IMG/VR virus record: IMGVR_UViG_3300050821_002614
Coordinates: 1 to 42,117 of that record
Direction: 5' to 3' (one strand)
Source of the DNA: a virus
DNA: 42,117 nucleotides
Below, one piece after another: positions 10,612 to 33,741 of this stretch. Below the pieces are notes generated by a model, which was not told the origin of the DNA, ran no database searches, and saw nothing but the letters and a program-made list of their open reading frames with translations. Every line of letters starts with the position of its first letter. Position 1 is the first letter of the stretch. Made by a program: the position numbers and the translations under genes.

Positions 10612-10949
10612 TGGCTCAGTTTCGCATCGTGCCGAGTTATGAGACACAGCTTTCGCCCGGCAATCACAATGATTCGGTCTGGTATCGGTATTTCCAGCAG
10701 AACGAATTAGGCACACCGCCCAGCAGCGAAATGGTGCTAGCGGTGGCGGCATCCCCCTTTAGCTATGCCTATCCGTCGAAAGGTTTCCTGATTGTCTCGG
10801 GCGGTACGGTCTCGGTCATCATGTTCTCACGCACTCCGGGAACCTTCTATCTCACCGGGCAAATCGCGGGCGTATTCCCTGGCGCACAGAATGACGTGCT
10901 CAAGATCACCTATAGCGTCAAGCCGGCCGTGGTGTTCATTCCGACATGA
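10611..10949 (+). CDS. Hypothetical neck/tail-associated protein (112 aa)
   Basis: The ATG overlaps the stop of the gp10-like gene, and the end overlaps the cupin-SET gene by 4 bp. The C-terminal half resembles a small phage beta module (SYAYPSKGFLIVSGGTVSVI...FYLTGQIAGVFP) often encoded next to neck genes. No enzyme motif or membrane segment is seen. It is likely a small virion or assembly protein. Confidence 0.68.
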   Translation: MAQFRIVPSYETQLSPGNHNDSVWYRYFQQNELGTPPSSEMVLAVAASPFSYAYPSKGFLIVSGGTVSVIMFSRTPGTFYLTGQIAGVFPGAQNDVLKITYSVKPAVVFIPT

Positions 10950-11755
10950 ACCTGCCCGCGACATTGAACACCTTGGAAGGCGTGATGCAGGGACTACCGC
11001 AAGTCGCGTGCGATGTCGTGCACGCCTTTGCGCCCGGCATCTACATCCGGCAAGTCACCTTGCGCGCCGGCTCCTTTGTGATGGGGCACCACCACCGGCA
11101 AGCGCACTTGAACATCATGGTTAAGGGTCATCTCACCCTTTTTGCCACCGATGGCACGCGCTCAGAACTCTATGCGCCGGTCATCTGCGTAGCGGAACCA
11201 GGCCGCAAGGTGGCCTATGTGCATGAAGACACGCTATGGCTGAACCTCTACGCCACCACGGAAACCGATGTCGAAAAATTGGAAGCGACCTACTTGGAGA
11301 TCACCGAGGGCTGGCAGTCTGTACATGATGCATTCCACATGAATCGCGACGCGGACCGGGAGGACTTCGATAACTTTCTCTGGGAAACCGGCTTATCTGC
11401 GGAATCGGTGCGCATCGAATCAGAAAACACCGTGGATCAGATGCCGTTCCCGCAAGGTGCGTACAAGTGCAAGGTGGGCCCGTCTGACATTCAAGGTAAA
11501 GGCTTGCTCGCCTGTGCTGACATCGCGGGCGCCGAGATCATTGCGCCTGCCAGGCTTGATGGCAAGCGCACCCCGGCCGGCCGCTATACCAATCACGCCA
11601 AAGTCCCTAATGCGCAGATGATCGCGCACGCGAACGGCGATATCTTTCTCATGTCGGTGAAGCCGATCGGCGGCAGTTTGGGCGGCCAGGCCGGCGAGGA
11701 AATCACCGTCAACTATCGCCAAGCGCTCACCTTGAATCAGCTGGTAACCCAATGA
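10946..11755 (+). CDS. Cupin-SET domain fusion protein
   Basis: 269 residues. The N-terminal half (about 1-120) is a cupin-like domain with the metal-site pattern GHHHRQAHLNIMVKGHLTL. Small cupin-like proteins of this type occur next to neck genes in podophages. The C-terminal part (about 175-265) has the order of a SET domain: IQGKGLLA, then RYTNHAKVPNA, then GEEITVNY, which match the GxGxxA, NHxxxPN and GEExxxxY elements of protein-lysine methyltransferases. If active it would methylate a lysine on a virion or host protein using SAM. It overlaps both neighbours by 4 bp, inside the structural operon. The cupin assignment is weaker than the SET assignment. Confidence 0.78.
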   Translation: MNLPATLNTLEGVMQGLPQVACDVVHAFAPGIYIRQVTLRAGSFVMGHHHRQAHLNIMVKGHLTLFATDGTRSELYAPVICVAEPGRKVAYVHEDTLWLNLYATTETDVEKLEATYLEITEGWQSVHDAFHMNRDADREDFDNFLWETGLSAESVRIESENTVDQMPFPQGAYKCKVGPSDIQGKGLLACADIAGAEIIAPARLDGKRTPAGRYTNHAKVPNAQMIAHANGDIFLMSVKPIGGSLGGQAGEEITVNYRQALTLNQLVTQ

Positions 11756-12519
11756 GCGCGGTAGCGGCGGGAATCATCGCCGGGGGCGCGGTCTTAAGCG
11801 CCGGCATCTCGGCGTATTCATCGGGGCAGGCGGCCAACAAACAGGCGCAGTCGGCGCAGAACTCCCTGAACCTGCAACAAGGCATGTACGACCAAACGGT
11901 GGGCTATGAAGCGCCGTACCGTGACGCGGGCACGGGCGCCACCTCGCAATTGAATTACTTGCTTGGTACCGGCACACCGGGAGCTGGCAACACCGCGGCG
12001 TCAAGCCCTGCCGGTGGTTTCGGTTCCCTGAATGCGCCGTTTACCGGCGACATGATGAAGCAGTACAGCCCCGCGTATCAGTTCCAGATGCAGCAAGGGC
12101 AACAGAATGTATTGAACCAGACTGCGGGACAGTCCGGCGCACTGTCGGGGGCGGCTTTGAAGGATCTCACTAGTTTCAATCAAGGCTACGCCAATACCGC
12201 CTTTAATAACGCGTTCTCGCAATATCAAACGCAGCAATCGAACACCTTCAACCGCCTGGCTGGCATTGCGCAGCTGGGCCAAGCCGCATCCTCCAATCAA
12301 GCGAGTGGTGCGAGTAACTTTGGCTCTAGCATCGGCAGTGCCGCGCAGAATATCGGCACCGCACAGGCCGGCGGCATCGTGGGCGCATCGAATGCCATCA
12401 CCGGCGGCATCAATTCTGCAACGCCGTGGCTCTATGCCGGCGGTGGTGGTAGCGGTGGCTGGAACTTTGGTAATTCCGATACTACTGATATGAGTGGCTT
12501 TGCCACCGGTGGCGGATAG
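11752..12519 (+). CDS. DNA ejection (internal virion) protein 1
   Basis: 255 residues, rich in Gln, Gly, Ala, Asn and Ser. It has an N-terminal hydrophobic Ala/Gly segment (AGIIAGGAVLSAGISA, about 6-21), then helical Gln-rich sequence and a Gly-rich tail. This is the usual appearance of the first small ejection protein (P22 gp7 equivalent), which is injected with the DNA and builds the channel through the envelope. ATGA overlap with the preceding gene; its TAG shares a base with the next GTG. Confidence 0.78.
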   Translation: MSAVAAGIIAGGAVLSAGISAYSSGQAANKQAQSAQNSLNLQQGMYDQTVGYEAPYRDAGTGATSQLNYLLGTGTPGAGNTAASSPAGGFGSLNAPFTGDMMKQYSPAYQFQMQQGQQNVLNQTAGQSGALSGAALKDLTSFNQGYANTAFNNAFSQYQTQQSNTFNRLAGIAQLGQAASSNQASGASNFGSSIGSAAQNIGTAQAGGIVGASNAITGGINSATPWLYAGGGGSGGWNFGNSDTTDMSGFATGGG

Positions 12520-13886
12520 TGGCTGACGGTTATCAAGCGGTCGCGCTCGGCATCAAGCCGCAAGATCCTAGCCAGACATTTGACAGTCTCAACAGTATTT
12601 TAGGTCTGCAGCAAAAACGCCAGGGCTTGCAGATCCAGGCACAACAGCTGCAGCAAGAACAACTCAAAACGCAGCAGCAGCAAGGGGTGCAGGACTTTTT
12701 CAAGTCCTTTGACCCGACTGACCATATCGGCGCCGATGGCACCACTGATGTCAACAGCGTGCATACCAGCGACACCTATAAGAATGCCGGCAACGCCAAG
12801 CCGCTGATTGACCAAACGTTGGGCCAGATCAAACAGCAGCAATTGACCGCCAAGCAAAGCCTGCAGTCGTTGAATGACGACGCGCTAGGTCTATATACCC
12901 GCGGCATGAACACGCTGCAGAACGATGACGACGTGAAAAAAGACAACGCGGCTGGGCGTGCCAAAGTCGATCAATTGCACCAATCTATCGCCGCAATGAG
13001 TCCGGACATGGCACGCGTCGCCGGCACCTTTGGCCCGGTCACGCAACACGCCAAACAGGGCGATTTGTCCAAGGCAGTGGGCGCGGTGGGCTTAATGGGC
13101 GCGGATGTGATCGGGCAACGCGGACAGCAGAATCCGCAGCAGACCAGCAACGCGCAACAACAGATTCTTAATCGCGACGTCGGCACCGGAGCGCTATCCG
13201 CTCCCCCTGGTGGTACTGCTCCTAGTGGTGGTCCCGGTGGGCCATTGAATCCTACATCCTCGGTGGTTGCCGGCAACACGGCCCGCACCACGGCGGTTGC
13301 CGGTAGTGATATCGATCGGGCTAATGAAATCAGCGCCAAGATTCAGCCATCGCAAGCGGCCATCGGCATTACGCAGCGGGTAGATGATCTCGCCAATCAA
13401 ATTAGCTCCGGCAAGTTCGCCAAGTGGGTCATGGATAAGGCGGCTGCCGCTGGTAACCAAGACCCGGCCATCACCGCACGACAATTGCTTGAGAAAGACT
13501 TGGGGCAAGTCAAATCGGCCGCGACGGCATCCGCTGCAACGGATAAAAAAATGGACACGATTTTGGCCGGCTATCCAGAAGCCACATCGACATCAGACAC
13601 CATCCACGGTGCCATGGACTATATCCGCGGTTCATTCCGGCAAAATGTGGCGCGCGGGGAACTGTTGAATAAGTACCGGGACAAAAAGCCGAACTTAGAA
13701 GGCTTTCAGCATGCCGACGACGTATTGACCGGCCACACGGAACCGCTTATGCATGAATTCAATGCGCTGAAGACTCGACAAGAACGTGTCGATTTTTACA
13801 AGCGCAATTTCCATGAGCGCGGGCAAGCGGAAGCCTTCACAAACCGCGTTAGTGCCATGGGTGATATGAATGTCCTTAGCCGCTGA
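12519..13886 (+). CDS. DNA ejection protein 2 (coiled-coil rich)
   Basis: 455 residues from a GTG overlapping the upstream TAG. The N-terminus has a strongly Gln-rich coiled coil (about 30-60, LGLQQKRQGLQIQAQQLQQ). A Pro/Gly-rich linker lies near residues 205-250, and further helices follow. The position between the gp7-like and the large third ejection protein fits P22 gp20. It overlaps the next gene by 17 bp. Confidence 0.72.
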   Translation: MADGYQAVALGIKPQDPSQTFDSLNSILGLQQKRQGLQIQAQQLQQEQLKTQQQQGVQDFFKSFDPTDHIGADGTTDVNSVHTSDTYKNAGNAKPLIDQTLGQIKQQQLTAKQSLQSLNDDALGLYTRGMNTLQNDDDVKKDNAAGRAKVDQLHQSIAAMSPDMARVAGTFGPVTQHAKQGDLSKAVGAVGLMGADVIGQRGQQNPQQTSNAQQQILNRDVGTGALSAPPGGTAPSGGPGGPLNPTSSVVAGNTARTTAVAGSDIDRANEISAKIQPSQAAIGITQRVDDLANQISSGKFAKWVMDKAAAAGNQDPAITARQLLEKDLGQVKSAATASAATDKKMDTILAGYPEATSTSDTIHGAMDYIRGSFRQNVARGELLNKYRDKKPNLEGFQHADDVLTGHTEPLMHEFNALKTRQERVDFYKRNFHERGQAEAFTNRVSAMGDMNVLSR

Positions 13887-15723
13887 TCCGGAATTAGATG
13901 AGGCGTTCGGGCCGGCTACCGCAGCACCATCGGCGCCCACATCGCTCGATTCTGAACTAGACGCTGCATTCGGGCCACCGCCAGCGCGGGCCGCAGTCGC
14001 GAACAAGCCAACGAGTCCTTACGCCGATCGCCCGGTAATCAGTGATGCAGTAGACAACCAATTGCATGAGCTTGGTAGCGGGATGTTGCACGGCGTGGTT
14101 GGTGGGTATAAGGGTCTCGTTACGCTTGCCACTAGTCGCGATCCGGACAAAGCCGCCGCAGCGGTTGAGGCGGAAACGGCGAAGGCCTACCACGCGCCGG
14201 TATCGCCTTACGTCTCTACGATGGCGCCCGCGGCGCGCAAGGCGTGGGAGTCCGGCACACAGCTGCCGGCCGCTACGGAATTGGGCGATATCGCGGAACG
14301 TCACGGCGCATCCCCTGCCTTGAGCACCGGTCTTGCAGTGTTGCCGGCAGCGGCAGCGGCATCCCTTGGTGCGCCGCGTGGCGGCTTGGGCGAAGCGCCG
14401 AAACTGACCCCGACCGGCGCACCGGAAGCGCAAGCGGTAGTGAATAAGGCCAGCGAATCGCAATCGATGGGCGCCGCTGGTACGCCTATTGATGTATCGG
14501 AGGCGTCACCGCAGGGGAAGGCTGCCATTGCGGCAGCGGACCCGGCGAAGTTGGATTCCGCGGCATTGCAAAATCATTTGGAAGCGGAACGCCATGGCGT
14601 TCAATTATCGCGCGGGCAGGCGAATCGCGACCCGGTACAGTATTCGAACGAACAAAATTCGACACTTGGCGCTAAACAACTTGCTGCACAAGAGGATCAA
14701 TTGGTTAATGGGATAGATGACATTCGCCGTGACGCCTCACCATCAACGGTCCACAACAACGTCATCCAAAACGGGCAAACGGTTGTTGATTCGTTGAAAG
14801 CCTACGACGAACCGGTGCAAGCGAACATCCGCGCCAAATACAAGGCATTAGAGGATGCAAACGGCGGCAGCCTACCAATTGACACCGGTAGTTTTGTTTC
14901 CAATGTCGACGCCATTTTAAAAAAGCGCTTCCTTACTGGGTCTGTTCCCGCTGCCGGCAAAGAGTTACTTGATAGTTTGCGCGCCGGTGAGCCGTTGGAC
15001 TTCGAAGGCTTTGAAGAGGCGCGAAGCCGCTTGGCGGAAGCGCAGCGGAACGGCGGTAGCGAGGGGACTGCGGCGAAGGCCATACGCGCGCAGCTTGAAC
15101 AAATGCCACTGGCACCGGAAGCCGCAAAACTTAAGGGCCTGGCTGACGAAGCGCGCGGCGCTGCCCGTAGTCGCTTCGAAGAATTGGAAGCTGATCCCGC
15201 CTATCAAGCCGCGGTTGACGATGTTGCCGGTGGCATCAAAAAGGGCCAATCGTCACCGCTGGCTGACAAGTTCCTAGATAGCCATGCGCTCGGCAATGCA
15301 CCTAAATCGCAGGTTGATCTAATGATGTCGAAACTAGACGACGAAGGCCGCGGTGCAGTGGCCTCGCATACCTTGAACGCTATCCGGAAGAGTGGCGTTA
15401 ACTCTACGGGCAAGGTGGTGCCGAAAGGGTATAGCGATGCACTGGCGAAATACGGGCCTAAACTAGATTCATTGGTAGCCCCAGAGACGCGCCAGGGGCT
15501 AGAAGAAATGGGCCATGTGATTAATAACGCCAAAGTGGCGCCGCCCGGCAATTTCGTCAATTACTCTAAATCTGGCGTCATCATGAACGCTGCGCAACAT
15601 GCCGGAGAAGCGGCAATCAATGCCAAAACGTTAGGGATCGGTGTGCCCTTTATCAAGGGAGCACTAGAGCGAAAATTTATCGATGACGCATGGTCACCGT
15701 ACGCTGGAATCGAAAAGCGCTAA
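13870..15723 (+). CDS. DNA ejection protein 3 (large)
   Basis: 617 residues, Ala-rich and helical. Near the N-terminus a short motif occurs twice: ELDEAFGP (about 9-16) and ELDAAFGP (about 28-35). The last residues, FIDDAWSPYAGIEKR, recur almost unchanged at the C-terminus of the opposite-strand microprotein encoded just downstream. Position and size suggest the third ejection protein (P22 gp16 position), delivered into the cell ahead of DNA. The start ATG lies inside the preceding gene. No catalytic motif was recognised. Confidence 0.75.
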   Translation: MSLAADPELDEAFGPATAAPSAPTSLDSELDAAFGPPPARAAVANKPTSPYADRPVISDAVDNQLHELGSGMLHGVVGGYKGLVTLATSRDPDKAAAAVEAETAKAYHAPVSPYVSTMAPAARKAWESGTQLPAATELGDIAERHGASPALSTGLAVLPAAAAASLGAPRGGLGEAPKLTPTGAPEAQAVVNKASESQSMGAAGTPIDVSEASPQGKAAIAAADPAKLDSAALQNHLEAERHGVQLSRGQANRDPVQYSNEQNSTLGAKQLAAQEDQLVNGIDDIRRDASPSTVHNNVIQNGQTVVDSLKAYDEPVQANIRAKYKALEDANGGSLPIDTGSFVSNVDAILKKRFLTGSVPAAGKELLDSLRAGEPLDFEGFEEARSRLAEAQRNGGSEGTAAKAIRAQLEQMPLAPEAAKLKGLADEARGAARSRFEELEADPAYQAAVDDVAGGIKKGQSSPLADKFLDSHALGNAPKSQVDLMMSKLDDEGRGAVASHTLNAIRKSGVNSTGKVVPKGYSDALAKYGPKLDSLVAPETRQGLEEMGHVINNAKVAPPGNFVNYSKSGVIMNAAQHAGEAAINAKTLGIGVPFIKGALERKFIDDAWSPYAGIEKR

Positions 15724-15773
15724 TCCTTTTTTTCGATACCGGCATAGGGTGCCCAAGCATCCTCAATAAATTC
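15673..15773. repeat. Protein-coding inverted repeat (two 44-bp arms)
   Basis: Arms 15673-15716 and 15730-15773 are 34/44 identical in inverted orientation. Eight of the ten differences fall at third codon positions. The left arm encodes the C-terminus of the large ejection protein (+), and the right arm the C-terminus of a 51-residue membrane protein (-). The short spacer holds both stop codons. The transcript could also fold into an imperfect hairpin, which might act between the converging genes. Confidence 0.9.
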
Positions 15774-15875
15774 TTTCGTGCCTGGCCGCAGCTTGCGGTT
15801 CTCGCGATCCGTGCGAATGCCGTCTTTGACAATCAGATAGACCACCAGCGCACCAAACAGAATGTAAGGAATCAT
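15720..15875 (-). CDS. Single-TM microprotein with ejection-protein C-terminal tag
   Basis: 51 residues from the ATG at 15875, which overlaps the TGA of the upstream 33-codon gene as ATGA. An N-terminal membrane helix (YILFGALVVYLIV, about 4-16) is followed by a charged region (KDGIRTDRENRKLRPGTK) and the C-terminus FIEDAWAPYAGIEKKD, nearly the same as the end of the converging ejection protein. A longer reading to 15989 exists, but its first 38 residues look non-coding. It is encoded against the late operon, at the place where P22 carries its sieA/immI genes. A role in superinfection exclusion or immunity is an inference. Confidence 0.75.
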   Translation of the reverse strand: MIPYILFGALVVYLIVKDGIRTDRENRKLRPGTKEFIEDAWAPYAGIEKKD

Positions 15876-15973
15876 CGGCCGCGTCCCAAGTGAAAGGACT
15901 TGCAGAGCATGGTGATGGCGCCCACGCACACACCGGCATTCAACAGCGCTACTAACAGCACAAGGATTTCCAT
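15872..15973 (-). CDS. 33-residue membrane microprotein
   Basis: ATG at 15973 with a strong GGAGG site four bases upstream on the minus strand. It is nearly all one membrane helix (MEILVLLVALLNAGVCVGAI...) ending in a basic tail (GRGR). The TGA stop overlaps the ATG of the next membrane microprotein by four bases, so the two are made together. The ribosome site on the minus strand overlaps the start codon of the + strand tail-fibre gene at 15983, so the two transcription directions share almost no spacer. It is too short for family assignment. Confidence 0.7.
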   Translation of the reverse strand: MEILVLLVALLNAGVCVGAITMLCKSFHLGRGR

Positions 15974-15982
15974 TAGGCCTCC

Positions 15983-17020
15983 ATGACAACGACGGTTCTC
16001 GCTCCCTATCTCACATCCCAGTTCTTCGGCAATAACGGCGCGTTTTTGAGTGGCGGCCAGATATTCACCTACCAGGCCGGCACCGTCACGCCGATCGCCA
16101 CCTATACAGATAGCACGGGCGGCACGCCCAACACAAACCCCATTGTACTTAATGCGCGCGGGGAGTGCTCAATTTGGGTTAATCCAAACACTGCATATAA
16201 GTTTGTGCTGCAGGACAGCAGCGGGAACACCATATGGACCCGCGATCAGGTCATACAAAGCCAGCTAATCACGCTTTACGGTGGCGTCGACACCGGCGGC
16301 GTGAATGCCTACATCCTGAATTTTGCGGCGCCCTATACCAGCTACGTTGACGGTACGGTGATTTATTGGATACCGGCCAACACCAACACCGGTCCATCCA
16401 CCATCAATGTGAATGGACTTGGTGTAGTGAATCTCGTGAATCAGGGCGGGAGCGCACTCACAGCCGGCCAGATTTTCGCCAATCAAATCGCCGTCATCAT
16501 GTACAAGGGCGGCTCGTTCTATTTGGTGTCTTCCGGGTATTCGAGCGCAGCCGCACAGACACTATTCATTGCCAATCGCTCTGTTGGTGCAGGCGCGCAA
16601 GCGCTCGCCGGCAATTCCACTACGACGGTGATATTCGATAATACATCCATCAATCGCGGCACGAATTACAACACTGCCACAGGATTATTTACTGCGGCCA
16701 TCGCCGGAATTTATACCTTCACCGCAACGCTGGTTGTTACCAGTAGCGGCGCCGCGAGCGGTTACGGTCCGTATTATTTCAGCAAGAATCTTGCCTCCAC
16801 CACTGGCAATTATTGGCCGCTGAACGGGCTTATTCAAGGTTCGCTCTCGGGATCTACCCCCGCCAGTGTTCAACAAGGCATATTCGGCGCAACCGCTAAT
16901 TTCTCTATGAATAGCGGCGACACGATGAGCATTCGTTGCCAGATGCCAAACCCCGGCGGCGGCTTTACGGTGGCGGGCGATGGCAAATCGTCGCAATTCT
17001 CCGGATATCAAAGCGGATGA
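15983..17020 (+). CDS. Receptor-binding tail protein with C1q-like head
   Basis: 345 residues. Residues 1-90 form an N-terminal module (FFGNNGAFLSGGQIFTYQAG, TPNTNPIVLNARGE, KFVLQDSSGNTIW) shared with the next gene, probably the virion-attachment domain. Residues from about 205 to the end resemble a C1q/TNF-like jelly roll: VIFDNTSINRGTNYN, then TGLFTAAIAGIYTF. This predicts a trimeric protein with a globular binding head. No lyase motif is seen. The stop overlaps the next ATG as ATGA. The ribosome site is weak, and the start lies inside the minus-strand GGAGG region. Confidence 0.83.
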   Translation: MTTTVLAPYLTSQFFGNNGAFLSGGQIFTYQAGTVTPIATYTDSTGGTPNTNPIVLNARGECSIWVNPNTAYKFVLQDSSGNTIWTRDQVIQSQLITLYGGVDTGGVNAYILNFAAPYTSYVDGTVIYWIPANTNTGPSTINVNGLGVVNLVNQGGSALTAGQIFANQIAVIMYKGGSFYLVSSGYSSAAAQTLFIANRSVGAGAQALAGNSTTTVIFDNTSINRGTNYNTATGLFTAAIAGIYTFTATLVVTSSGAASGYGPYYFSKNLASTTGNYWPLNGLIQGSLSGSTPASVQQGIFGATANFSMNSGDTMSIRCQMPNPGGGFTVAGDGKSSQFSGYQSG

Positions 17021-22575: not shown

Positions 22576-22833
22576 ATGAAAACCAGTATTAAAAAACAAT
22601 CTCAGGCGGCATTAGCAATGGGTCCCCGCTGCGGGGACCATATTCAACTTCGCAATCAATGGGCTTGCGTCAGCATTACGCGAGACGATGTGGCAGGCCA
22701 ACCGACCACATATGTTGTAGACGGTGACATTGCGGATGAGCGCGCAAGCGTCAAAGAATTTCCTACACTGACCAAAGCATTGACTTACGCCTGGCACTCA
22801 TTAGCCGTGTATCAAAATGGACGGGTTGACTAA
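22576..22833 (+). CDS. Hypothetical protein upstream of integrase (85 aa)
   Basis: ATG after GAAAGGAAA. It has a basic N-terminus (MKTSIKKQSQAAL), followed by mixed alpha/beta sequence with WACVSITRDDV and TLTKALTYAWHSL. No family is recognised. Its TAA overlaps the integrase ATG by one base, so the two are co-translated. It could be a regulator or directionality partner of integrase. Confidence 0.6.
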   Translation: MKTSIKKQSQAALAMGPRCGDHIQLRNQWACVSITRDDVAGQPTTYVVDGDIADERASVKEFPTLTKALTYAWHSLAVYQNGRVD

Positions 22834-23846
22834 TGGGCACCATCGTCAAACGCGGCACCAAACACCGCGCCGTCGTGCGCTTTGCCGGCAAAACACTCAC
22901 CAAGACCTTCGATAAGGTGCGCGATGCGGATGCCTGGATCGCGGCCACCGAGACAGATATTCGCAAGGCAGTCTTTACCCCTGAGGGCTTCCGCAACGAA
23001 CTCACCTTGAGCGAGATCCTTGTAAAGCACCGCAACGAAGTGCTGGCGCTGCGGCCGTATAAGGTGAACCTGCAGGCCTCCCTGATGTTCGCGCGCCAAT
23101 TCGAGGGCGTGACCTTGAGCCAGATGACGCATGCGTGGTGGGTCAAAGCGGTGTCATCGTGGGCGGTCAAGCCGGTGAGCGCGCAACGCTATGTGCTCAA
23201 CATCGTCTCGGCACTGCGCGCGGCGGAAGACCTCCAATGGGGGGTCAAGGTCGACTGGGCCAGCTACGATGCCGCCATGGCCGCCATGAAGCGGCAAGGC
23301 AAGCTCACCGAAGGTAAGCCGCGCGATCGGCGCGTCAGCGATGAAGAGATTGCGGCGATCAAGGCACAGATTACCGACTTGATTTTGCCGCTGGCGGACA
23401 TCATTGACTTTGCATTGCTCACCACCATGCGGGTGGGGGAAATCGCGCGCATCACGTGGGCTGATCTTGACCAGCGGCGCAAAATGCAAATGATCCGCGA
23501 CCGCAAAGACCCGAAACGCAAAGCCGGCAACGATCATGAGATTCCGTTGCTGGCCGGCGCGCTCGATATCATCAAGCGCCAGCCCCGCACCGATGCGCGG
23601 ATTTTCCCATGGAATGCCGAGTCCATCGGCAAGGCGTTTGCGTTCATGGCGAAGCTTGCGCGCATCAAGGGCGTACACTTCCACGACTTGCGCCATGAGG
23701 GCATTACCCGACTGTTCGAACAAGGCTTCGCTATCGATGAGGTCGCGCTGGTCTCCGGCCATACGCAATGGGATACACTGCGGCGCTATACGCACATCAA
23801 GGGTGAGAGCTTGCACCAGGGACCGCGGCAAAGGCGGGCGGCATGA
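22833..23846 (+). CDS. int: Tyrosine recombinase integrase
   Basis: 337 residues. An N-terminal arm-binding-like segment (1-60) and a SAM-like core-binding domain (about 60-160) precede the catalytic domain. Catalytic residues in order: Arg about 200 (TTMRVGEIARITW), HDLRHE with His 284 and Arg 287, His 310 (SGHTQWDTLRRYTHI) and nucleophile Tyr 319. It inserts the circular phage genome into the host chromosome at attP. It is coupled to genes before and after. The attachment site itself could not be identified. Confidence 0.95.
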   Translation: MGTIVKRGTKHRAVVRFAGKTLTKTFDKVRDADAWIAATETDIRKAVFTPEGFRNELTLSEILVKHRNEVLALRPYKVNLQASLMFARQFEGVTLSQMTHAWWVKAVSSWAVKPVSAQRYVLNIVSALRAAEDLQWGVKVDWASYDAAMAAMKRQGKLTEGKPRDRRVSDEEIAAIKAQITDLILPLADIIDFALLTTMRVGEIARITWADLDQRRKMQMIRDRKDPKRKAGNDHEIPLLAGALDIIKRQPRTDARIFPWNAESIGKAFAFMAKLARIKGVHFHDLRHEGITRLFEQGFAIDEVALVSGHTQWDTLRRYTHIKGESLHQGPRQRRAA

Positions 23847-32916: not shown

Positions 32917-33386
32917 GCGTCGCGCTCCAGATTCCCCGCGCCGCCGCAGTCTTGCGGTGGATCTCCATATACATCTAATAGCGCGTCAATGCTCAGCCGG
33001 TAATTACCATCCAACCGAATCGCGCGCAGTAAATTTAGCGCGTGATCGCGTTGGCTTTCCAGTTCAGCGTGCTTTTGATCCCAGTAGTCATGGGATTGCT
33101 GAATGCGGTTGCGTTCGGCAACGATTGCGCGGGCGAGGTCCGGCGCGTCATGGTGCGACCAAAGGGTATCGGGTGGCGGCTCGCCGCGCAGCGCATTGAC
33201 CACCCCGCGCAACAGGTCGCCTTGCCGCGCGATCAATTCGTAGGATGCGTTTTCCTCTTCGCGCATTTCATCGGTGACGATTAATAGCTTTTGATATTTT
33301 TGCGCCCATTCGTCACGCTCGGCGATGGTGTTGGCAAGGGCGCGCTGCGTTTCGGTTAGTAGATCGCTCGGCGGCGTCGGGATCAT
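32913..33386 (-). CDS. Coiled-coil hypothetical protein (157 aa)
   Basis: Start at ATG 33386 (MIPTPPSDLLTE). Long helical region (TQRALANTIAERDEWAQKYQ; RAIVAERNRIQQSHDYW; AELESQRDHALNLL) with coiled-coil heptads. It ends CGGAGNLERDA. No family is recognised. Member of the minus accessory operon. Confidence 0.65.
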   Translation of the reverse strand: MIPTPPSDLLTETQRALANTIAERDEWAQKYQKLLIVTDEMREEENASYELIARQGDLLRGVVNALRGEPPPDTLWSHHDAPDLARAIVAERNRIQQSHDYWDQKHAELESQRDHALNLLRAIRLDGNYRLSIDALLDVYGDPPQDCGGAGNLERDA

Positions 33387-33613
33387 TGGTGGCGTTCCTG
33401 ATTGCGCAAGAGGTATGCACCTTGTCGGCGGCGCTTGGCGACTAGTTTGCGCCAGCACTTCAAGCACCGGCGGCCGGACCCTTCGGAGCGCGGGCCGCCG
33501 CAGTCCTCGCATACATATTGATAGGTCATGGCCGTGATACTGGTATTCGATGCCATAGGTTTTGGTGGGGTGCGGCTGGCGCGCGGCTGGCGCGCGGCTT
33601 CGCTCATGCTCAT
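33383..33613 (-). CDS. Zinc-ribbon protein, first gene of minus operon (76 aa)
   Basis: Start at ATG 33613 (MSMSEAARQP) with GAGGG seven bases upstream. A shorter start at 33529 has no ribosome site. The zinc ribbon YVCEDCGGPRSEGSGRRCLKC is followed by a very basic end (LVAKRRRQGAYLLRNQ). Possibly RNA- or DNA-binding. Confidence 0.58.
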   Translation of the reverse strand: MSMSEAARQPRASRTPPKPMASNTSITAMTYQYVCEDCGGPRSEGSGRRCLKCWRKLVAKRRRQGAYLLRNQERHQ

Positions 33614-33741
33614 GCGGATACCCTCACCAGGCCCGCGGTTACAACGGCCAACCCCGCGATCCGGTTGGACGGGGTACCCGCGCCGCTTATAACAAAGATC
33701 AGGTTTCGTGTCATCTTGCACCGCGCTTCGCTGAAAAATAT

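What the first reader, a model, noticed from the sequence alone, without database searches (positions are those of the whole stretch)
15673..15875. Membrane microprotein copies the C-terminal tag of the converging ejection protein
FI(D/E)DAW(S/A)PYAGIEK ends both the 617-residue ejection protein (+) and a 51-residue single-TM protein (-). The two DNA copies form a 44-bp inverted repeat. Eight of ten differences fall at codon third positions, so selection has kept the peptide in both. A membrane-held copy of an ejection-protein tag, encoded where P22 has sieA/immI, suggests a superinfection-exclusion factor that engages or blocks incoming ejection proteins, or a channel partner.
Basis: partly seen in the sequence, partly recalled or inferred. 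Interest (0 to 1): 0.85.

Follow-up and report, generated by a model that had tools for sequence, protein, structure and literature searches.

The report
Membrane microprotein copying an ejection-protein tail
A phage known only from sequence carries a tiny predicted membrane protein whose tail copies the end of the phage's own DNA-injection protein, and in several related phages the two tails have changed together, which hints at a decoy that may block injection by phages of the same kind.

Summary
The 617-residue ejection protein (+, 13870-15723) ends FIDDAWSPYAGIEK-R; a convergent 51-residue single-TM protein (-, 15875-15720) ends FIEDAWAPYAGIEK-KD. It is not a one-off. A C-terminal PGAG/PYAG-type tag is found in 122 of 128 distinct ejection loci (loose motif). 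Seven of the 128 have a convergent, N-terminal-TM microprotein ending in such a tag; an eighth (L119) has one co-directionally. The motif is in 7 of 41 slot ORFs against 2 of 16,558 others (motif written after seeing the seven). Tags tend to track their own partner: of 5,040 pairings of the seven, only the true one reaches its identity; with L119, 5 of 40,320. Homologous microproteins switch tag residues with their partners. Codon identity between copies is random (22 of 62, 25.4 expected), so the peptide, not a DNA repeat, is kept. P22 has convergent sieA in this slot, aimed at the gp16/gp20 ejection proteins (PMC10883804). Best reading: a membrane-tethered decoy of the ejection tag that hinders injection. 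Mimicry and co-change are shown; exclusion is inferred. Most relatives have an untagged membrane protein there, or none by my filter.

The parts
13870..15723 (+). 617-residue ejection protein (third of three, gp16 position), with C-terminal tag
   Evidence: ORF; follows a phrog_598 'DNA ejection' protein and a 455-residue protein; 128 distinct homologous loci, the window included; BFVD matches include proteins named injection protein and LT_GEWL-domain protein. No Pfam or PHROG match of its own
15676..15717 (+). tag in the ejection protein, FIDDAWSPYAGIEK (residues 603-616)
   Evidence: mean pLDDT 95 (601-610) and 87 (611-617) after 52-53 (571-590)
15720..15875 (-). 51-residue microprotein: N-terminal TM (about residues 1-17), basic stretch, C-terminal tag; predicted N-out/C-in
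   Evidence: inside the 89-aa TTG ORF; hydropathy and charge; homologue in G018/L085, 57% over residues 3-49
15729..15770 (-). tag in the microprotein, FIEDAWAPYAGIEK
15872..15973 (-). 33-residue TM ORF (MEILVLLVALLNAGVCVGAITMLCKSFHLGRGR), GGAGG before its ATG, stop overlapping the micro ATG (ATGA)
   Evidence: a 35-residue TM ORF lies the same way before the microprotein of G018/L085
11752..12519 (+). gp7-like DNA ejection protein (context)
   Evidence: phrog_598, E 2.7e-24
12519..13886 (+). 455-residue protein in gp20 position (context)
   Evidence: order of genes only; no PHROG or Pfam match
15983..17020 (+). next late gene; the minus-strand pair fills the gap before it
   Evidence: phrog_26190; C1q, Pfam
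22833..23846 (+). tyrosine integrase (suggests a temperate phage)
   Evidence: PF00589, E 3.8e-18,

Best explanation
The microprotein is a membrane-tethered decoy of the ejection protein's C-terminal docking tag. Its N-terminal helix anchors it in the inner membrane with the tag on the cytoplasmic face (predicted). When a phage with a similar ejection protein injects, the incoming third ejection protein arrives at that membrane; [quoted passage not shown] This would be superinfection exclusion that works like P22 SieA but by peptide mimicry, and it would explain why the tag tends to follow the phage's own ejection protein. Shown: conservation of the tag, its copy on TM-type microproteins, peptide-level conservation with randomised codons, co-change in part of the pairs, the sieA-like position. 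Inferred: topology, docking site, time of expression, exclusion.
For: Seven convergent TM-type microproteins end in the motif (7 of 41 slot ORFs against 2 of 16,558 others). Pairing: tag identity 65 for the seven true pairs, mean 37.7, reached by 1 of 5,040 pairings, the true one; without the window and L182, 1 of 120. Homologous microproteins switch with their partners: window/L085 at I/A, W/L, K/R; L112/L178 at A/Y, F/T, A/E. Own tail ranks among 100 distinct tails: window 1, L085 1, L182 1, L178 2, L112 4, L117 11, L172 27. Same codon at 22 of 62 shared residues, 25.4 expected by usage. All seven have a hydrophobic N-terminal stretch; the net charge of the next 20 residues is positive in six and -1 in L085. 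Two AlphaFold2 models place the tag with high confidence behind a low-confidence linker, which suits a docked tail. P22 sieA is convergent with gene 16; [quoted passage not shown] Integrase in 4 of the 7 tagged records.
Against: No function was tested. No sigma-70-like promoter was found in 15500-16500. L119 carries its tagged ORF on the late strand, and its tag (SLAPYAGL) does not match its own tail (SLKPGAGI) better than others do: rank 45 of 100; with L119 included 5 of 40,320 pairings reach the true sum, and with L119 but without the window and L182, 5 of 720. Four of the seven convergent microproteins have at least one foreign tail that scores better (ranks 2, 4, 11, 27), so specificity is clear in only three or four. 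By BLOSUM score another pairing slightly beats the true one (388 against 386). 16 of 22 filtered slot proteins are untagged. No integrase match in L117 and L178 (40-kb records) or in the 8-kb L172 fragment. Homology of this family to P22 gp16 is not established (hhalign probability 7.6%).
Confidence: 0.5

Rival explanations
1. Lytic-cycle partner: the microprotein acts late in its own infection, for example keeping newly made ejection proteins from inserting into the host membrane, or staging them there for assembly, by holding the same docking site.
For: L119 has a hydrophobic + tag ORF on the late strand, TTG start 5 nt behind the ejection stop. Tag matching suits a partner of the phage's own ejection protein just as well. 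No promoter seen for a separate transcript.
Against: Seven of eight are on the strand opposite to the late genes. 120 of 128 loci showed no tagged copy within 500 nt behind the ejection gene, so it is not generally needed for assembly.
Confidence: 0.2
2. Shared host partner: both tags bind the same host membrane or cytoplasmic factor, and the microprotein either shields it (still exclusion) or recruits it to help injection.
For: T7 gp16 needs its last five residues for infectivity and its C-terminal domain is presumed to reach the cytoplasm (passages of PMC8954989); P22 injection needs host YajC (PMC10883804, section 8). A common host factor would explain why several tags, and L119's, fit foreign tails as well as their own.
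Against: Confident placement of the tag in two monomer models suggests docking on the protein itself; no host partner is known here.
Confidence: 0.15
3. Cargo tag: the C-terminal peptide directs ejection proteins into the capsid, and the microprotein is a further packaged or ejected component.
For: The tag is conserved at the end of what is by gene order an internal virion protein (122 of 128 by the loose motif).
Against: Seven of eight lie antisense to the late genes; a TM protein would sit in the membrane; rare among relatives (8 of 128).
Confidence: 0.06
4. By-product: a DNA-level inverted repeat (terminator or template-switch duplication) or a leftover of recombination, with no function of its own.
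For: The arms fold strongly; L112 and L178 keep slightly more same codons than expected (5 of 8 against 3.0; 4 of 8 against 2.8).
Against: Codon identity is random overall (22 of 62 against 25.4), L119 is not inverted, and peptides co-change in homologous microproteins. The same base differences speak against an assembly fold-back.
Confidence: 0.05

Closest known systems
P22 SieA (superinfection exclusion, block of DNA injection)
   Same: Convergent gene directly behind gene 16 (22 nt gap), as ours behind the ejection gene; membrane protein whose target is the ejection apparatus (PMC10883804).
   Different: SieA is 164 residues with the FxRYPxEAxxFNK motif (PMC10883804, section 13); ours has 51 residues, one hydrophobic stretch and no such motif; BLASTP of the two gives E 2.5. 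P22 SieA carries no copy of the gp16 tail (by eye).
HK620 hkcB (hypothetical protein abutting gene 16)
   Same: Minus strand, begins at the base after gene 16, hydrophobic N-terminus.
   Different: Long polar, coiled-coil-looking tail and no copy of the gp16 tail, by eye.
Untagged small TM proteins in the same slot of relatives (for example the 'GFRKV' type in L086, L092, L096, L101, L110)
   Same: Same convergent slot and similar size.
   Different: No tag; two hydrophobic stretches around the GFRKV loop, by eye.
HK97 gp15, TP-J34 and Tuc2009 exclusion proteins, T4 Imm
   Same: Membrane or predicted membrane proteins that block DNA entry; for TP-J34 and HK97 the block depends on tape measure or tail tube genes (as told in PMC10883804 section 14; T4 Imm from passages of PMC11436027).
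   Different: Long-tailed phages; no copied tape-measure or ejection tag is mentioned in the parts I read.

Membership tests
SieA superinfection exclusion proteins | gene convergent with the gp16 gene and lying directly behind it | tested here: met
SieA superinfection exclusion proteins | about 160 residues, with the FxRYPxEAxxFNK motif | tested here: not met
   51 residues, one hydrophobic stretch, no significant similarity; feature from PMC10883804 section 13
SieA superinfection exclusion proteins | blocks DNA injection by P22-like phages when expressed alone | not testable with these tools
   needs plating and injection assays
SieA superinfection exclusion proteins | escape mutations in gp16 and gp20 | not testable with these tools
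   needs phage genetics
P22-like gp16 ejection proteins (for the 617-residue partner) | last gene of the three-gene ejection block, before the tail genes | tested here: met
P22-like gp16 ejection proteins (for the 617-residue partner) | sequence homology to P22 gp16 | tested here: inconclusive
   hhalign probability 7.6%, E 0.0046 over 97 columns
Known anti-phage defence proteins (PADLOC-DB) | match to a model | tested here: not met
   0 families for 7 proteins: six of the seven convergent tagged microproteins (not L172) and the 33-residue ORF

The most novel reading that the evidence does not exclude
A new way of excluding one's own kind: short-tailed phages hang a copy of their own ejection protein's docking tag on the inner membrane, and the tag's sequence helps set which incoming phages are jammed. 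Tag type would act as a partial compatibility code, gained or swapped several times and carried in either orientation behind the ejection gene, and the untagged membrane proteins of the same slot would be alternative, SieA-like blockers.
Probability: 0.35. Interest if true: 0.9.

Novelty: new variant of a known kind. Interest (0 to 1): 0.8.

Why it matters
The P22 SieA paper finds it difficult to understand how SieA contacts such diverse ejection proteins and says the details need further work (PMC10883804, section 14). A natural peptide copy that co-changes with its ejection protein names a likely contact site: a short C-terminal tag. If true it gives a testable peptide inhibitor of DNA ejection, a marker for candidate exclusion genes in uncultured phages, and a case of self-mimicry used for self-exclusion.

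Tried and rejected
Searches that led nowhere: tblastn of the microprotein in the phages collection, no match at E up to 10; the ejection proteins of window, L182 and L101 match only Pseudomonas phage PAE2 there (25.8-28.6%), whose homologue lacks the tag; the microprotein alone in viral contigs, none of 42 candidate stretches confirmed, and the two-sequence alignment A1 found only G018 again (1 of 49); the tag pattern in viral contigs gave one locus, L003, where it lies in unrelated sequence; the tag pattern in genome contigs, none; A4 in genome contigs gave one short MAG contig cut before the tail (L254). Xanthomonas phage PBR31's last internal protein has no PGAG-type tail, and among the ORFs listed I saw no small convergent TM ORF by eye. 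Rhodoferax phage P26218 and two Manatee Spring phages were fetched and only their gene tables looked at. Solved structures: none for the ejection family by sequence at E 1 or by fold at E 0.001. PHROG matches of microproteins are weak and of unknown function: phrog_34033 for the window (E 0.0054), phrog_2442 for L085 (E 0.016).

Considered and rejected or left open: terminator or hairpin selection, recent gene conversion, assembly fold-back (codon data). SieA's conserved cytoplasmic motif as a similar mimic: the best BLASTP pair aligns the tag with it, but E is 2.5, so it is not claimed. P22, Sf6 and HK620 gp16 tails show no PGAG-type tag by eye. The lysogeny link by integrase is weak: 15 of 39 records searched, 4 of the 7 tagged ones.

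Limits of the statistics: the strict motif was written after seeing the seven, with [PTV] and [AG] to admit L117 and L182; L182 was first noticed by its score against its own ejection protein; the window pair was given. The tree (quick method) used 67 rows with 45 C-terminal residues removed, had L119 labelled as without tag, and took some untagged labels from the looser list; the tag needed 6 changes, and 123 of 500 shuffles were as low. The census needs a Shine-Dalgarno-like motif and missed L178. The 128 loci are distinct, not independent: they have 100 distinct 40-residue tails, and 112 that were long enough fall to 67 at 80% identity.

Full report
What is there. The window is a 42,117-base virus record with a P22-type late block: portal (phrog_156), head closure (phrog_578), a phrog_598 DNA-ejection protein, a 455-residue protein and a 617-residue protein, then tail genes, and a tyrosine integrase at 22833-23846. 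The 617-residue protein ends KFIDDAWSPYAGIEKR. On the other strand, converging on it, a 51-residue protein ends EFIEDAWAPYAGIEKKD. The 14-codon arms differ at ten bases, nine of them third positions. A 33-residue TM ORF precedes the microprotein, ATGA-coupled.

The tag belongs to a family. The portal brought 80 loci from viral contigs. I searched 46 of those 80 records: 9 hold the ejection protein and 1 (G018, IMGVR_UViG_3300012582_000008) the microprotein. Many of the 37 without the ejection protein are short fragments, but G011, G020 and G032 are 38-42 kb. In all nine, as in the window, P[GY]AG[IL] lies within 15 residues of the C-terminus. Profile searches then brought 73, 11 (3 of them new) and 80 of 183 loci. 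With the window, L085-L093 and L254 these are 167 loci, of which 128 are distinct ejection genes with a complete 3' end. By a loose motif 122 of 128 carry the tag within the last 45 residues; by the strict motif used for the microproteins 40 of 128 do within the last 40. The six without are L098, L111, L113, L167, L215 and L249.

Tagged microproteins. In 7 of 128 loci an ORF on the opposite strand, its stop within 10 nt of the ejection stop, ends in the tag: window, L085 (G018), L112, L117, L172, L178, L182. Pairs (ejection / micro): KFIDDAWSPYAGIEK/EFIEDAWAPYAGIEK; QFAKKVLAPYAGIER/AFAKRSLAPYAGIER; KAAAKTFAPGAGLTR/RAARRSFAPGAGIIP; QAMTKSLQTGAGISL/RHMRESLAVGAGIAR; RATKRTLAPGAGLTR/RWVEWTLRPGAGLIP; KYAKEATEPGAGMSR/RYVRRATEPGAGLAT; KAAKETMTPYGGMGR/RLTKEVMTPYGGMDR; identities 12, 12, 8, 7, 8, 8 and 10 of 15. 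The motif is found in 7 of 41 ORFs of that slot and 2 of 16,558 other ORFs of the same loci (Fisher p about 1e-17; motif written after seeing the seven). One of the two others, in L119 (4356-4466), is again a hydrophobic N-terminus plus tag, 36 residues, LLALLLAVFLTEKLNTKSAEEKSLAPYAGLDYKEPK (first residue from TTG), on the strand of the ejection gene and starting 5 nt behind its stop. L117 and L172 have the lowest scores against their own partner (36; 37, 35), and some chance ORFs in the loci reach 36-38, one overlapping the ejection gene 47; shuffles of the C-terminus reach them 0 and 1 times in 5,000.

Covariation. By identity over 15 residues the seven true pairs score 65; the mean of all 5,040 pairings is 37.7 and no other reaches 65. 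By BLOSUM62 one other pairing is slightly higher (388 against 386). Without the window (given) and L182 (found by own score) the true pairing is still the best of 120; with L119 added, 5 of 40,320 pairings reach the true sum, and 5 of 720 without the window and L182. Ranked against 100 distinct tails, the own tail is 1st for window, L085 and L182, 2nd for L178, then 4th, 11th and 27th, and 45th for L119. So specificity is clear for three or four, and absent in L119. The N-terminal parts of the window and L085 microproteins are homologous (z 13.4), and so are those of L112 and L178 (z 15.3); within each such pair the tag residues differ in step with the ejection protein (I/A, W/L, K/R and an acid/base swap; A/Y, F/T, A/E). 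Among the ejection tails listed, PYAG is found in window and L085, and PYGG in L157, L175 and L182; of the seven convergent microproteins those with Y are window, L085 and L182, while L119's has Y and its own tail G. On the ejection tree the tag is scattered (6 changes for 7 rows, 123 of 500 shuffles as low), so it was gained, lost or swapped more than once.

What is kept. Over the seven pairs 62 residues are shared; 22 use the same codon, 25.4 would be expected from codon usage. The DNA copies keep no more likeness overall than the peptide forces. That speaks against recent gene conversion, hairpin selection and an assembly artefact. L112 and L178 have slightly more same codons than expected (5 against 3.0, 4 against 2.8) and may be younger.

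Anatomy. All seven convergent microproteins start with a hydrophobic stretch; the 20 residues behind it are net positive in six (-1 in L085, whose first residues behind it are nevertheless basic), which predicts the N-terminus outside and the tag in the cytoplasm (inference by the positive-inside rule). AlphaFold2 on the window protein (67 sequences) gives mean pLDDT 95 and 87 for the tag after 52-53 in the linker, with a bridge assigned at E615; on L182 (54 sequences) 92 and 90 after about 60. A tail placed so well behind a poor linker is probably docked on the protein body; I had no coordinates or error matrix to see where. BFVD matches include viral proteins named injection protein and LT_GEWL-domain protein; no solved structure matches at E 0.001 by fold or E 1 by sequence.

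The slot. In P22, sieA lies on the minus strand 22 nt behind gene 16; in HK620, hkcB, with a hydrophobic N-terminus, begins at the base after gene 16; Sf6 has no annotated gene there. In 22 of 128 loci my filter (Shine-Dalgarno-like motif, hydropathy) finds a convergent TM ORF: 6 tagged, 16 untagged, several of a type with a GFRKV loop; 106 have none by this filter, L178 among them wrongly. [quoted passage not shown] near-full escape needs changes in gp16 (P546S, G532W) and gp20, and the sieA-like genes examined in prophages lie between genes 16 and 9 (PMC10883804: abstract, sections 8 and 13 and part 1 of 2 of section 14 seen). T7 gp16 needs its last five residues for infectivity and its C-terminal domain is presumed to reach the cytoplasm (PMC8954989: passages only).

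Mechanism. From these I infer a membrane-held decoy that competes for the docking site of the incoming ejection tag. If the site is on the ejection protein itself, the co-change of tag and partner follows. What does not fit well: L119, whose ORF sits with the late genes and whose tag is not its partner's; no visible promoter; no integrase match in two of the six tagged records of 24 kb or more. A late-acting partner of the phage's own ejection protein and a shared host factor are the main rivals.

In print. Eight searches of the held library listed 20 of 61, 15 of 50, 6 of 6, 15 of 37, 10 of 49, 10 of 187, 1 of 1 and 0 of 0 papers; no title or abstract start among those listed describes a copied ejection tag on a membrane protein. 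I opened only three papers, each in part (PMC10883804, PMC8954989, PMC11436027). Most papers of subscription journals are not in that library, so this is no proof of absence.

Noticed in passing
L119:4356-4466: Co-directional hydrophobic + tag ORF directly behind the ejection gene; a hairpin with a T-run follows before the next gene (seen by eye).
   Followed up: partly
window 15872-15973 (-): 33-residue TM ORF coupled by ATGA to the microprotein, with a 35-residue TM ORF in the same place in G018/L085; likeness of the two beyond hydropathy was not tested.
   Followed up: partly
L086, L090, L092, L096, L101, L110 behind the ejection gene: A recurring small slot protein with a GFRK loop between two hydrophobic stretches, a candidate alternative exclusion protein.
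   Followed up: no
window 15983-17020 (+): Late protein with a Pfam C1q-domain match (E 3.8e-09) at residues 206-251.
   Followed up: no
window 10946-11755 (+): Protein matching phrog_34170 and two tail-fibre PHROGs, with a Pfam SET-domain match below the curated cut-off.
   Followed up: no
HK620 (NC_002730) 33313-33642 (-), hkcB: Protein with a hydrophobic N-terminus abutting gene 16, annotated hypothetical; same slot as P22 sieA.
   Followed up: partly
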